Source: Spirochaetales bacterium
GTDB lineage: Bacteria > Spirochaetota > Spirochaetia > Sphaerochaetales > Sphaerochaetaceae
Direction: 5' to 3'
DNA length: 36,896 nt
Assembly (NCBI GenBank): GCA_022784805.1
Contig: JALFYG010000131.1
Location: forward strand, 1-36,896
Within the stretch, counting starts at the first letter, position 1, and the number at the start of each line of letters is the position of its first letter. This document shows positions 4,178 through 11,477 of this stretch, piece by piece. The translations under genes and the position numbers were made by a program. The notes under the pieces are model-generated. The model was not told where the DNA came from and ran no database searches. It saw only the letters and a list, made by a program, of their open reading frames with translations.

Positions 4178-6247
4178 TTCACTCTACAATGTAGGGCTTC
4201 TTATTTGTTCAGATTCAATAGCTTAGGATAAGACGGTGGTGTGGTTCACTTTCCTCTGATGGGTTTCTTACCTTAAATAATTCACTTGACTACTTCGGGT
4301 TTTTTGTTGATCTTGATTCACTTACAAAACTTAGGTTTCTTATGAACTGTGGTTCACTTTTCCATGATAGATTTCTTTACTTTGAGTGGTTCACTTATTC
4401 TGGCATGAATTTTTATCCTTCTTTGATTCACTTTAGGGCTGTGGAATCATTTAAGACGAGTGACTCACTTTTATAATATGGATTTATTCACATCTTAAAT
4501 TACTTTCATCCTATAAGTTTAATAAACTAAGATGGTTCACTATGGTTTGTTTGGCTGCTTACACTTCCTGCTTCATTTTTAATTGCTGGTTTTCTTTCAA
4601 TATTTGATTCACTTTTGTAAACTGGGTTTCTCTTTTTTAATGGTTCACTATGATTTATTGGATTTCTTAACCTTCTTGATTCACTTTTACTTTTAATTTT
4701 TTATGATTGGCTCATTCCTGCAATTTATAAAACAATTCGATACGCTGATTTTCACTGTGTTTATTTTAACAACGGCACGCTTCGCTCCAATATCATACAT
4801 CTTGTTTTTGACTCACTTTTTATTTAGGGTTTCTCCAAGAATTAGATTCACTTCAATCTTAATGTTTTCTATAGTCACGATTCACTTTAACAACACGTTT
4901 TTATTCATGATATGATTCACAGTTTCAATGTGTATTCATCAATCAGCTTGGTTCACTTTACAAACTTTGGGTTTATTAATCTTTATGGTTCACTTGGAGG
5001 AAATGTTTTTATTTGTGATTGCGGTTCACTTCTTTGTCTTAAACTTCTTGATATTTTTGCTTCACTTGGCATCATTGGATTTATTCATATTTCTGGTTCA
5101 CTTCTTGAGGTTGGCTTTCTTTGCTTTTCCTAGGTTCACTTTTTTTAAATAGGTTTCTCGAACCATTTGATTCACTTGCGAGTCCGTATTAATTTACCTA
5201 GACAATTCATTTTATTTATTTGGATTACTTTTGCAGACGATCCATTTGTTATCTCTATTTTTGTAATTCTTTATGATTCACTGATAAATTGAGTATCCAT
5301 TAATACCTATGATCCACTAATGTCTGCGATTTTATTTGAACTTCTGATTCACTTGTTTTTACAGGATTTTTTCAAAACACTGATTCACTTGGCTATCTAA
5401 GTTTATTACGCTGATGATTCACTTTAAAATCTTGTATTCTTTGCTATTTGTGGTTCACTTTGCATAATTAGATTCCTTATTTTCTATAGTTCACTTTACT
5501 TTCCTAAGTCTATTTATAAAATGTAGTTCACTTCTTCATGACAGTTTTATTTTTAATCATGATTCACTCTTTAAACCCAGGTTTATGACTCGTTTTGATT
5601 CACTTCCACTATTTAAGTTTTTTAAACAGTGTAATTCACTTCTTCCTCCCTGAGTTTATATAAGAAATGGTTCACTTTGTTAATTTGGTTTTCTTAGATA
5701 TCTAGGTTCACTTTCGATAACTGTGTTTATTAGCCTGAATGATTCATTTCCTCCTTGTAGATTTATTAAACGATGTGATTCACTGTTTTTCTTTAGGTTT
5801 CTTGATGAACTTTGATTCACTTTTACCAAGTAGATTTTTTTATGTCTATAGTTCACTTCTATTTGGAGGTTTTTTCGTTTTCATGATTCACTAGGTGGGG
5901 ATGGATTTATCCAAATGGCTGATTCAATTATTTGATTTGATTTCATTTTGTATTTTGGTTCACTTCTTCTTAATAAGTTTCTAGATATGAATGATTCACT
6001 TATTTTACCAGGGTTAATTTGGGATACTGAATTCACTTGGTAGAGTTGGTTTTCTTCATGACTCAAATCCGCTTAAACATTATAAGTTTCTTTAGTGCTT
6101 TGATTCACTTGTTTTATCTGTTTTTATTTAAATCATCAATTCATTCTTATTACTTGGGTTTATTGGCATCAGCGATTCACTTTTAAACTCTAAAGTTATC
6201 ACCCACTGTAATTCACTTTGCATAATTGGTTTTATTATTTTCTATAA
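4178..6247. repeat. Dual-repeat/dual-spacer direct repeat array, interpreted as a TIGR (tandem interspaced guide RNA) array
   Basis: About 58 units by hand parsing; roughly two thirds of start-to-start intervals are exactly 36 bp and most others 34-38. Unit (+ strand): TGRTTCACTT, ~9 nt variable, RGTTTMTT, ~9 nt variable. Variable halves differ between units. No coding frame survives. Confidence 0.85.
4215..4239 (+). repeat. Left arm of inverted repeat bounding the array
   Basis: GGATAAGACGGTGG (4226-4239) is the exact reverse complement of CCACCGTCTTATCC at 6252-6265. Weaker similarity extends outward (TCAAT.AGC). Confidence 0.9.
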
Positions 6248-6251
6248 TTTT

Positions 6252-6279
6252 CCACCGTCTTATCCTTCGCTGAATTGAT
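6252..6279 (-). repeat. Right arm of inverted repeat bounding the array
   Basis: CCACCGTCTTATCC (6252-6265) then ttcGCTgaATTGAT; see left arm. Confidence 0.9.
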
Positions 6280-6305: not shown

Positions 6306-6746
6306 TTATCCTTGGAAATCCTTCATGTAGAGAGCCAATACGCTTGGGAATGGCGCCCCTACATTATGATCTCCAAACTTCACTCTTCCTTTGATGAAGA
6401 AGAGCGTCGCCTTGCCCTGCACCCAATCCCACCACCATTTCGTATCTGTACGAGCTGGCAGGAGCATGAGTACAAAACTGTTGTATTCCTTCTGCGACTC
6501 CTCATAAGCTTTCTTGACCCATGACGAGATTTCTCTTCCATAGGGAGGGTTGCACCACACCCCCCCCCTCCAAGGTTTTGAGAGTCCGTCATCCTTTGGC
6601 GTATAGTAGCTTTCACACTTCGTGTTCTCTGGCAATGCACATGCATCAAGAGAGAAGTTGAATATCGAAGAGATTCTGTCGAAAAGATATTTCGGTGTCT
6701 CTGCCACTATGTTTCCAGTAGATGTAAGACCTTTGGTCATATTCAT
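6306..6746 (-). CDS. dam: Phage DNA N-6-adenine methyltransferase (Dam-like family)
   Basis: FNFSLDACALPENTKCESYYTPKDDGLSKPW...VWCNPPYGREISSWVKKAYEE...LLPARTDTKWW: NPPY and family signature. Confidence 0.9.
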   Translation of the reverse strand: MNMTKGLTSTGNIVAETPKYLFDRISSIFNFSLDACALPENTKCESYYTPKDDGLSKPWRGGVWCNPPYGREISSWVKKAYEESQKEYNSFVLMLLPARTDTKWWWDWVQGKATLFFIKGRVKFGDHNVGAPFPSVLALYMKDFQG

Positions 6747-6755
6747 AAATACCTC

Positions 6756-7035
6756 TTAAAACAACTCAGGCTGCCACGGTATCTTGTCTGACTTGTCTTC
6801 AGTAATAGGGTGGGAGAGTGCATACTCTATACTTTCTCCTATCCATCGAACTACAGGAACGCAGAAGCTATTTCCTAAAGCCTTATACCTATGACTGTCG
6901 GGAGCATGCTCTGCATTAGACCATGGTATATCCGTATAGTCATCAGGAAACCCCTGCAGCCTCCCATCCCAAAGTTTTCCATGCCACTGTCGCAGCCTCT
7001 ATTCCGGAGAAGAGGGAAAGGTATCTCAGATTCAC
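6756..7035 (-). pseudogene. dcm: C5-cytosine DNA methyltransferase remnant, internally deleted and frame-shifted
   Basis: From GTG at 7035: (M)NLRYLSLFSGIEAATVAWKTLGWEAA (motif I) then, in another frame, LQGFPDDYTDIPWSNAEHAPDSHRYKALGNSFCVPVVRWIGESIEYA...* (motifs IX-X). The entire middle is missing. Confidence 0.88.
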
Positions 7036-8240
7036 ATCTCACCTCTCATGATTGCATCGGAGATTCTAGGCATTGAAGTCTTGTGCCCGAGATACTCCTC
7101 CTGATAAGGCACTCTTACTGAAAGCCCTTCCAGTTTTCTCCAAACGTCATATAGATCCTGAAGGAATATCTTTATCATGTATCTGCATGCAGCCATGTTT
7201 ATATGAGCCTTTCCTTCATCCTTCCACTTTTTTGACTCGTCTCCATTAACGGGCTTCTCAGAGTTCATCAACCTATTCTTGTAGGAATCATAGTAAATTC
7301 TATATTGACTATTGGCCTTAAGCATACATGATGCCAATACACCCATAAGCTTTGACTTTAAGTTTGCATTGTATGGAATAAGATAACCCTTGGTTCTTTT
7401 GTCTCCTCTGACCATCTCATCACTAAGAATGATATTACCGTCCTTATCTTTCTTCTTTCCCGGTCTTAGTCCAGGGTTGAGTCCTGCATACTGGATAATC
7501 TTAGAGGGGGTGTCAGCCTTGTAAATGTCTATGGTAGAGATGATGATTGCTGAAAGGGCGGGGCCACAACCCTTTACCTTGGAGAGAAACTCGGTATAGA
7601 TAGGGAACTTCTCGACCTCAGTCTTGATTGTAGCGAAGATTTCATCCTCCATCTCCTTTGCAGTATCAAGAACGTTTCTTATCTGTGGAATCTCTTCTTC
7701 GGGAAGAATTGCATCATCTTTGTTCTGATCTGTTCCATCTGCTTTTTTGGAAAGTCTGTTGGACGTTCTTATTCTCAAATCCTGATAATCATATACCACC
7801 TGGACAAGCTTTCTAAGCTTCTCCCTGGATACTTCCATATCCTTGTTTTTTTTGTTCTCAATAGTCTTGTTCTTTCTTTTTGCTACAGTAAGGAGAGCTT
7901 TTGCAAGAGCCTCTTCATAAGATAGTGTTTCATCCAGCTTCATACTATCCTGTGCAATTTTAAAAACTGATTTCATACTGTCATCACCAAGCTTTTTAAG
8001 CTTTGGGTCAATGACAATCTCTTCTTTCTTTTCAGATTCAACACTCTTATTTGAGGACTTTTTCTTATTGGAAGCTTTTTCATTAGAAACAGATTTTGAA
8101 TTTCTATTTTTTTCAATAGGTTTAATTTCTGTTTCCTCTTCCAAGAAATTCTCCGCTTCTCTGATTTCCTCAAATTCCTTTCTGATGTCCAAAATCTCTT
8201 TCTGCATTTCCTGTGCATCGGTGTTTTTTTGTCTTTCCAT
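7032..8240 (-). CDS. IS110 Transposase_20/Nop-like domain protein without recognisable nuclease domain; candidate TIGR-associated protein (TasA-like)
   Basis: AGGAG RBS before MERQKNTDAQ. Lys-rich N-terminus, helical segment, then FLSKVKGCGPALSAIIISTIDIYKADTPSKIIQYAGLNPGLRPGKKK...KGYLIPYNANLKSKLMGVLASCMLKANSQYRIYYDSYKNRL. No DEDD/RuvC or HNH motif seen. Confidence 0.8.
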   Translation of the reverse strand: MERQKNTDAQEMQKEILDIRKEFEEIREAENFLEEETEIKPIEKNRNSKSVSNEKASNKKKSSNKSVESEKKEEIVIDPKLKKLGDDSMKSVFKIAQDSMKLDETLSYEEALAKALLTVAKRKNKTIENKKNKDMEVSREKLRKLVQVVYDYQDLRIRTSNRLSKKADGTDQNKDDAILPEEEIPQIRNVLDTAKEMEDEIFATIKTEVEKFPIYTEFLSKVKGCGPALSAIIISTIDIYKADTPSKIIQYAGLNPGLRPGKKKDKDGNIILSDEMVRGDKRTKGYLIPYNANLKSKLMGVLASCMLKANSQYRIYYDSYKNRLMNSEKPVNGDESKKWKDEGKAHINMAACRYMIKIFLQDLYDVWRKLEGLSVRVPYQEEYLGHKTSMPRISDAIMRGEM

Positions 8241-8265
8241 ATTTTCTCCTTTAAAATTGTTTTGT

Positions 8266-8433
8266 TCAGTTGTTTGCAATAGATACGATTACTAATGCGA
8301 GTGCCATTACATCTATAAAGAGCAGTACATAGAACATTTTCTTTTCCCCCTTCACGCTCGCTCTTGCTGCAAGATACATAAGGCATGCCAACATTATGAA
8401 ATAGATGATCACCATGAATTCATATAAGGTCAT
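8266..8433 (-). CDS. 55-aa small membrane protein (not in supplied track)
   Basis: Hand translation MTLYEFMVIIYFIMLACLMYLAARASVKGEKKMFYVLLFIDVMALALVIVSIANN*; two hydrophobic segments. Confidence 0.5.
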   Translation of the reverse strand: MTLYEFMVIIYFIMLACLMYLAARASVKGEKKMFYVLLFIDVMALALVIVSIANN

Positions 8434-8732
8434 AGCTTGATTTCCTTGTCTGCTATTATGTTCATAGGCTCTGAAATTACGGTCTTTTTCGTTTCGGATA
8501 TGGGAGACTTATATTCCTTCTCCATTCTATCCAACTTGACACCGGTCTTATTCATCTCTTCAACCTTGTCTTCGAGTATCCTGAGCCTTTCCTTGATGCT
8601 CTCCATCATATCCCTAAGCCCGGTATACATATCCGATACGTGTCTATCCGACATATAGTCTATGTATCCGTAGATGCCGATGAGTACGACTGCAGCCGAA
8701 AGCCCTATCAATATTACAATGTATGCACTCAT
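8430..8732 (-). CDS. Single-TM, coiled-coil small protein
   Basis: MSAYIVILIGLSAAVVLIGIYGYIDYM then charged heptad-like region; AGGAGA RBS. Confidence 0.6.
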   Translation of the reverse strand: MSAYIVILIGLSAAVVLIGIYGYIDYMSDRHVSDMYTGLRDMMESIKERLRILEDKVEEMNKTGVKLDRMEKEYKSPISETKKTVISEPMNIIADKEIKL

Positions 8733-9246: not shown

Positions 9247-9612
9247 TTACAGATGCATATCTACAAGTTCCTTCATATCCTCCAAGGATCTGATTACTGC
9301 ATATTCTATACCGCTTTGTATGCACATCTTTTGGAAAGTCTTCTGATGTTGTGTTTGTTTTCCTATCTCGGTCTTGCACTCTACATAACCAAGATAGGCA
9401 GGGTAAAATCTTTCCAAAGGAAAAGAGAAGGGCTTTAGAGGCCACCATACAACCAAGTCCGCTACACCAGATACAAGTCCTGCTGAAACAAGTTGAGCCT
9501 GCATCACTTTAGATCTTCCTCCGGCCTCATTAGGCACTGAGTGGCAGAAGATACCAAGGTGACGTAGATATTCTACACATTTATGTTGGATAACCAATTC
9601 TTCATTGTTCAT
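9247..9612 (-). CDS. VRR-NUC domain nuclease
   Basis: E..IQ....YLR..GIFCHSVPNEAGGRSK...GLVSGVADLVVW...YVECKTEIGKQTQHQKTFQKMC. Confidence 0.88.
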   Translation of the reverse strand: MNNEELVIQHKCVEYLRHLGIFCHSVPNEAGGRSKVMQAQLVSAGLVSGVADLVVWWPLKPFSFPLERFYPAYLGYVECKTEIGKQTQHQKTFQKMCIQSGIEYAVIRSLEDMKELVDMHL

Positions 9613-10598: not shown

Positions 10599-11477
10599 TT
10601 ATATTTCAAGCCACCACTTCATGACCTCTTCCGGAGTTCTCCATGTAGTTTTAAGTCCTTTTCTTTTCCTCTCCTCCAACATCCTTCCGAAAGCCCTCAA
10701 ATAAGCCTCTTTGTATTTCGGATAAGAGGAAAGAACCTTCTCCCTCTTGGTATCCATTGGACACCCTATACATCCTAATCTGTCATAGCCTTGGTCATAG
10801 AGAGAACAGTAGGGGAGGTTCTCTTCTGATATAAACCTCCATACAGTCTCCTCAGACCAATCTACAATCGGATTGCAGATGTGCTTTCGTTTTGGTATGC
10901 AATGTTCCAGGAGCCTCCTATCTTCAGAATTGTCCACGTTGAGAAGAACTCCGTCGGATTCGAATTCTCCTCTGTTGTTTCTTCTTTTTATGGACTCTGC
11001 CCATCTTACACCGGTAAGACAAAATCTTCCTTCTCCACCTTTTTCTTTCAGTTCCTTGCAACAATACCTCGTAAGCCTTGTAGGAGGCATACCGTTCTCT
11101 ACAATCAACTCCCACATTGTTTTTTTTGAAAGGTGTCTTTCAACGAAAGGGAATTCTTTTCTTATGAATCTGACCAATTCAGGATGATCCAGCCCTGTAT
11201 GTTGGTAGTGGAACTCGCAGAAGTCCAAGAATAAATCACCGAAGGCGAGGTTGCATAAACCATACACTGCAACACTGTCCTTGCCACCGGAGAAGCATAC
11301 ATAGAGTTTCCCTAGTCCCAAACGTTGCGAAAAGTTATATGCGGTCTTTATGCGCTCCACAGCTTTATTTTTTTCCTCTTCTATATCTAAAAAATAGTTA
11401 TTTGGAGCATAGATTTGTTTTTTTGTTATTTTTTCTGACAACTGTTTACTTCCTTCTATATTTGAAATTATTTTCAC
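10599..11477 (-). CDS. Phosphoadenosine phosphosulfate reductase family protein (CysH-like)
   Basis: LYVCFSGGKDSVAVYGL (SGGKDS PP-loop); YDRLGCIGCPMDTKRE C-terminal Cys motif. Confidence 0.9.
   Translation of the reverse strand: MKIISNIEGSKQLSEKITKKQIYAPNNYFLDIEEEKNKAVERIKTAYNFSQRLGLGKLYVCFSGGKDSVAVYGLCNLAFGDLFLDFCEFHYQHTGLDHPELVRFIRKEFPFVERHLSKKTMWELIVENGMPPTRLTRYCCKELKEKGGEGRFCLTGVRWAESIKRRNNRGEFESDGVLLNVDNSEDRRLLEHCIPKRKHICNPIVDWSEETVWRFISEENLPYCSLYDQGYDRLGCIGCPMDTKREKVLSSYPKYKEAYLRAFGRMLEERKRKGLKTTWRTPEEVMKWWLEI

What the first reader, a model, noticed from the sequence alone, without database searches (positions are those of the whole stretch)
4178..6247. Probable phage-borne TIGR array: ~58 units of dual repeat / dual spacer with a 36-bp period
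Seen: a bipartite unit repeats for 2.07 kb. Block 1 is TGRTTCACTT, block 2 is RGTTTMTT, and each is followed by ~9 nt that differs from unit to unit. Most intervals are exactly 36 bp. Example: TTCACTT ggctatct.. / TTCACTT tcgataactg TGTTTATT agcctgaatga / TTCACTT ctatttggag GTTTTTTC. Established: TIGR-Tas systems, as I recall them, use arrays processed into ~36-nt tigRNAs with two short (~9-nt) spacers separated by alternating repeats, and occur in phages. Inference: this is such an array. Standard CRISPR finders would miss it because conserved and variable segments are both under about 10 nt.
Basis: partly seen in the sequence, partly recalled or inferred. Interest (0 to 1): 0.97.

Follow-up and report, generated by a model that had tools for sequence, protein, structure and literature searches.

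The report
Long TIGR guide-RNA array in prophage
A virus integrated in, or carried by, a spirochaete bacterium has a 57-unit bank of tiny paired RNA guides next to the gene for their DNA-binding partner protein, a member of the TIGR-Tas family described in 2025, and what these guides aim at in nature is still unknown.

Summary
Window 4214-6254 is a dual-repeat, dual-spacer array with a 36-nt period. It is read on the minus strand: edge AAGUGAAYCA, 9-nt spacer A, loop A(U/G)AAAYCYA, 9-nt spacer B. There are 57 units (56 clean). ORF 7032-8279(-), upstream in the same direction, is a Tas protein (sequence match to solved TasR, E 1e-13; TasA-family profile, E 1e-34; its predicted fold best matches TasH/TasR). 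It has no RuvC or HNH domain, so this is TIGR-TasA. Of 55 non-redundant loci encoding relatives, 52 carry a same-strand array with closely similar repeats. The window array is the longest of the 71 arrays tabulated here. It is a new member of a known kind.

Target searches were null: own phage, 1.5 Mb of mostly viral DNA, host genome and 48 congeners gave no hits beyond matched controls. One possibly new point comes from relatives: arrays beside nearly identical tas genes differ greatly, and units shared out of context are almost always complete A-loop-B modules (19 versus 1), so whole tigRNA units seem to be what arrays copy and exchange. Mechanism (RNA-guided DNA binding without cutting) is inferred from homologues; no RNA data were available.

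The parts
4214..6254 (-). TIGR array, 57 units (0-56) of edge / spacer A / loop / spacer B; unit 0 at 6254-6219 lacks a canonical edge, unit 56 at 4251-4215 is degenerate
7032..8279 (-). tasA: 415-aa Tas protein (Nop/IS110-type RNA-binding fold, no RuvC or HNH domain); N-terminal helix and disordered linker 53-87, Tas core about 120-400
   Evidence: PDB sequence search: TasR 9mty E 1.1e-13, TasH 21kl E 9e-9; profile 1.3e-34 and 3.1e-29; model pLDDT 86.9, Foldseek TasH E 1.3e-10, TasR 9e-9, IS621 4.5e-4; phrog_4285 E 3e-35
6251..6265 (.). 15-bp arm AGGATAAGACGGTGG (minus strand) at the 5' edge of the array
   Evidence: perfect inverted repeat with 4225-4239; not seen at other arrays
4225..4239 (.). 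15-bp arm CCACCGTCTTATCCT (minus strand) at the 3' edge of the array, inside unit 56
6306..6746 (-). phage Dam-type DNA adenine methyltransferase between tasA and the array
   Evidence: Pfam PF05869 E 3e-28; a Dam-type gene also follows tasA in L009
6754..7031 (-). leftover of a DNA methyltransferase C-terminus (RYKALGNSFCVPVVRWIGESI...), interrupted by stops near tasA; identification by eye
   Evidence: translation
8430..8732 (-). 100-aa ORF of unknown function upstream of tasA; best promoter-like site on this strand at 8805-8777 suggests a shared operon

Best explanation
This is a TIGR-TasA locus of a temperate tailed phage in a Spirochaetales genome. Shown here: array anatomy, co-directional Tas gene, Tas fold without a nuclease domain, and the same arrangement in most relatives. 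Inferred from characterised homologues: the minus-strand transcript is cut in the edge repeats into 36-nt tigRNAs; a TasA dimer binds each tigRNA, edge and loop repeat each contacting one protomer; spacers A and B pair with opposite strands of an 18-bp site (A followed by the reverse complement of B). With no nuclease domain it should bind and bend DNA rather than cut it, most plausibly silencing or destabilising competing mobile elements (this last step is a guess, about 50%). The array looks like a library of many individual guides rather than a set of sites for one protein. The confidence given is for the identification as TIGR-TasA and guide array.
For: Autocorrelation and parser scores. 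TasR/TasH homology and fold. 52 of 55 non-redundant tas loci have an array on the tas sense strand; in the 40 loci tested the antisense strand scores at most 16.4 against a cut-off of 45. Repeat consensus AGYGARYCA / AGNMAACCA across most loci, with edge and loop positions 1, 8 and 9 changing together, as the founding paper describes (PMC12045711). Shared units elsewhere are whole A-loop-B modules, 19 against 1, so A and B behave as one functional pair. Duplicate units 0 and 21 keep 18 of 18 spacer bases while the loop differs at 4 of 9. No self-target excess.
Against: No transcript or small-RNA data. No target found above control in the host, 48 congeners or about 1.5 Mb of mostly viral DNA, so the competing-element role is unproven. 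The array repeats are more degenerate than in most relatives, so some units may be dead. No clear terminator follows the array, unlike the typical case in the paper.
Confidence: 0.93

Rival explanations
1. The repeats are DNA sites (iterons, centromere or operator array) for a DNA-binding protein, and the variable segments are unconstrained filler.
For: The array is non-coding and regular, in a phage genome region that also holds replication genes.
Against: Two different alternating repeats with pseudo-symmetry; the neighbour is an RNA-binding Tas fold; the same arrangement stays on the tas sense strand in relatives; spacers are kept as pairs when units move and are identical in the duplicate units 0/21 while the loop differs (Fisher p 0.019, a post hoc test).
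Confidence: 0.03
2. A decayed TIGR locus: once functional, now drifting, with repeats too degenerate to be processed.
For: Lower repeat information than most well-parsed relatives (17.9 against typically 20-27 bits per unit); irregular stretch at 4717-4818; neighbouring methyltransferase remnant.
Against: tasA is an intact reading frame with conserved core residues; edge G5 is invariant in the 34 units of 36 nt; spacers of units 0/21 unchanged.
Confidence: 0.12
3. TasA-tigRNAs regulate the phage's own genes or replication rather than foreign DNA.
For: Prophage setting; no nuclease domain.
Against: Self-matches of true A-loop-B pairs are no more frequent than of control pairs (3 against 10 over 455 pairs each; at zero gap 0 against 4); the window array has no tigRNA-type self-match of 16/18 or better.
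Confidence: 0.06

Closest known systems
TIGR-TasA systems (Faure et al. 2025, PMC12045711; e.g. Flavonifractor plautii locus)
   Same: solo Nop-type Tas protein without a nuclease domain, alternating edge/loop repeats, 9-nt spacers, 36-nt units, phage or prophage setting, array downstream on the same strand
   Different: 57 units against the 5-15 most often seen; more variable repeats; a Dam-type gene and a methyltransferase remnant lie between tasA and the array; 15-bp inverted repeat at the array ends
TIGR-TasR / TIGR-TasH (PDB 9mty; 9w04, 21kl)
   Same: Tas core by sequence and fold, guide architecture
   Different: no RuvC or HNH domain at the N-terminus, so no cleavage expected
Microcystis phage Mvi-JY20 tas locus (PP438412, annotated only as hypothetical protein)
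   Same: Tas homologue followed directly by a 36-nt array, edge TGCGAGCCA, loop CGAAACCCA
   Different: about 9 units; protein only 26% identical; terminator-like hairpin after the array by eye
IS110/IS621 bridge-RNA recombinases and box C/D snoRNPs
   Same: related Nop-type RNA-binding fold (Foldseek IS621 E 4.5e-4)
   Different: no DEDD domain, no bridge RNA or transposon ends, no L7Ae/fibrillarin setting; array of many short guides

Membership tests
TIGR-Tas | array of two distinct alternating 8-12-nt repeats separated by two about 9-nt spacers | tested here: met
TIGR-Tas | 36-nt unit length | tested here: met
TIGR-Tas | adjacent gene for a Tas (Nop-type) protein | tested here: met
   7032-8279(-):
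TIGR-Tas | edge and loop repeats share covarying box C / box D ends | tested here: met
   positions 1, 8 and 9 covary over 71 arrays; in the window the boxes are AG/AK and YCA/CYA, not UG/CCA
TIGR-Tas | array followed by a truncated edge repeat and a rho-independent terminator | tested here: inconclusive
   degenerate edge at 4214; no minus-strand terminator found there; inverted repeat instead
TIGR-Tas | transcript processed to 36-nt tigRNAs, Tas-dependent | not testable with these tools
   needs RNA sequencing
TIGR-Tas | tandem-spacer DNA targeting (A on one strand, B on the other) | tested here: inconclusive
   no target above control in host, congeners or viral DNA
TasA subtype | no RuvC or HNH domain | tested here: met
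   N-terminal 1-115 is helix plus disorder; no nuclease family hit
CRISPR | identical direct repeats of about 25-36 nt with one spacer per repeat | tested here: not met
   Tandem Repeats Finder finds no array here; repeats are 9-10 nt, two kinds
IS110-family transposase | N-terminal DEDD domain | tested here: not met
   predicted N-terminus is helical or disordered; closest folds are TasH/TasR

The most novel reading that the evidence does not exclude
TIGR arrays evolve by copying and exchanging whole tigRNA modules (spacer A, loop, spacer B) at edge repeats, within arrays and between phages, with the interior turning over much faster than the tas gene and the 3' end kept; the window's 57-unit array would be a large product of this. 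This would begin to answer how TIGR arrays arise and grow without an adaptation machinery.
Probability: 0.6. Interest if true: 0.65.

Novelty: new member of a known kind. Interest (0 to 1): 0.5.

Why it matters
TIGR-Tas was described in 2025, and its natural targets, array growth and the job of nuclease-free TasA are open questions. This locus adds a spirochaete (pro)phage with the longest array in the set examined. Comparing arrays beside relatives shows fast turnover next to conserved tas genes and movement of intact A-loop-B modules, which is testable evidence on how arrays grow and that A and B act together. The null target searches argue against self-regulation and against frequent exact targets in the host genus.

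Tried and rejected
Self- and cross-targets in 1.5 Mb of mostly viral DNA, 455 true against 455 control pairs, gaps 0-2: no excess. Host genome: 57 targets and 57 mispaired controls; all 6 positive controls found; one true 17/18 hit (unit 32, C241:29026-29042, upstream of an ATPase gene), about 0.1 expected by chance (rough estimate), so not claimed. Genus-wide (49 genomes): by my hand tally 24 units against 16 controls with a hit, not significant; recurrent hits such as unit 51 at the pnp start fall on conserved gene starts. IMG/VR scans for targets of two widely shared units and of the window's duplicate unit: 0, 3 and 7 hits, in the range I would expect by chance. First relative searches with the single protein found nothing; an alignment of two found 59. 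Pfam Nop profile does not hit the genome: too divergent. Rfam: no hit. Inverted repeat sought at other arrays: none of 10 bp or more.

Full report
Observation. The 36-nt periodicity at 4178-6250 is real: lag-36 identity 0.428 against 0.312 +/- 0.024, with the best lag elsewhere in the window 0.325. The array is ordered on the minus strand. The 34 units of exactly 36 nt give edge A A G U G A A Y C A at positions 1-10 (G5 invariant), loop A A K A A A Y C Y A at 19-28, and near-random spacers between. Edge and loop are pseudo-symmetric at 18 nt, matching the lag-18 peak. The parser finds 112 half-units on the minus strand (score 436), 12.5 on the plus strand and at most 15.5 in shuffles. With one non-canonical unit at the 5' end and a degenerate one at the 3' end there are 57 units. 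The stretch 4717-4818 is irregular.

Partner gene. The minus-strand ORF 7032-8279 matches the solved TasR (9mty, E 1.1e-13) and TasH (21kl, E 9e-9) by single sequence, and 1.3e-34 and 3.1e-29 with a profile of 27 relatives. The AlphaFold2 model (pLDDT 86.9) matches TasH and TasR first and IS621 next. Residues 1-115 are helix and disorder, with no RuvC or HNH fold, so it is TasA. A promoter-like site at 8805-8777 precedes ORF 8430-8732 and tasA; the array follows a Dam-type gene on the same strand.

Setting. The window is a whole contig of 36,896 bases with integrase, repressor, terminase, portal, head protease, major head and tape-measure genes, that is, a temperate tailed phage; no terminal repeat was found. 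The nearest relative of TasA in the same genus (44% identical) lies in an uncultured Spirochaetales assembly and has a methyltransferase gene before it, a Dam-type gene after it and a short array (L070).

Relatives. Fifty-nine IMG/VR loci encode relatives. After dropping near-duplicates, 52 of 55 loci have an array on the tas sense strand, with edge mostly AGYGARYCA and loop AGNMAACCA. Among 71 tabulated arrays, edge and loop bases at positions 1, 8 and 9 tend to change together, as described for TIGR arrays (PMC12045711). The window array is the longest; the median over parsed arrays is 9 units.

Array evolution. tas genes 99% identical (L041/L043) go with arrays sharing only 13 exact spacer matches over 52 and 61 half-units; 98% (L040/L050) share rearranged interiors; 96% (L034/L052) share only the last unit within one mismatch. 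In five comparisons of related arrays the 3'-most spacer is shared. After removing near-identical arrays, spacer pairs shared without their neighbours are A-loop-B in 19 clusters and B-edge-A in 1 (binomial p 4e-5, although clusters from related phages are not fully independent). In the window, units 0 and 21 have identical spacers (18/18) while their loops differ at 4 of 9; chance identity of two units is about 1e-6.

Targets. From the paper, A and B pair with opposite strands of adjacent 9-bp sites; the reported 8-nt 3' overhangs imply A followed by rc(B) (my derivation). No excess over controls was found in viral DNA, the host or the genus, and IMG/VR scans of three units gave few hits. Targets may lie in unsampled elements.

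Unexplained. A perfect 15-bp inverted repeat (4225-4239 / 6251-6265) brackets the array and is absent at the other arrays. It could close the transcript as a stem or mark a past rearrangement; neither was tested.

Verdict. The array is a TIGR array and the system is TIGR-TasA: a new member of a known kind, unusually long. What it does in nature is not shown.

Noticed in passing
4225-4239 and 6251-6265: Perfect 15-bp inverted repeat exactly at the two ends of the array, 2 kb apart; roughly 1e-5 by chance (own estimate) and not present at other TIGR arrays.
   Followed up: partly
G000:C241:29026-29042 (L071:9027-9043): 17 of 18 bases of the unit-32 target, about 40 bp upstream of a probable ATPase gene in the host chromosome, overlapping a possible -35 region; within chance expectation.
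   Followed up: partly
6754-7031 (-): C-terminal remnant that reads like a cytosine methyltransferase, interrupted by stop codons just after tasA; L009 has an apparently intact DNA methyltransferase gene upstream of its tasA.
   Followed up: no
L041, L043, L034, L052: The unit TTTAAGGCA / ACTTGGTCT occurs in four non-redundant arrays, also where the tas genes are only 79% identical, hinting at a common target or exchange.
   Followed up: partly
9247-9612 (-): VRR-NUC-like nuclease gene (Pfam just below cut-off) upstream of the tas operon.
   Followed up: no
10599-11477 (-): Phage PAPS-reductase-family gene.
   Followed up: no
L010 (PP438412.1, 21367-22434): Microcystis phage Mvi-JY20 carries a tas homologue and a TIGR array, annotated only as hypothetical protein.
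   Followed up: yes
L022:1499-2374: tas homologue with an in-frame stop in the matched stretch; sequencing error, decay or recoding.
   Followed up: no
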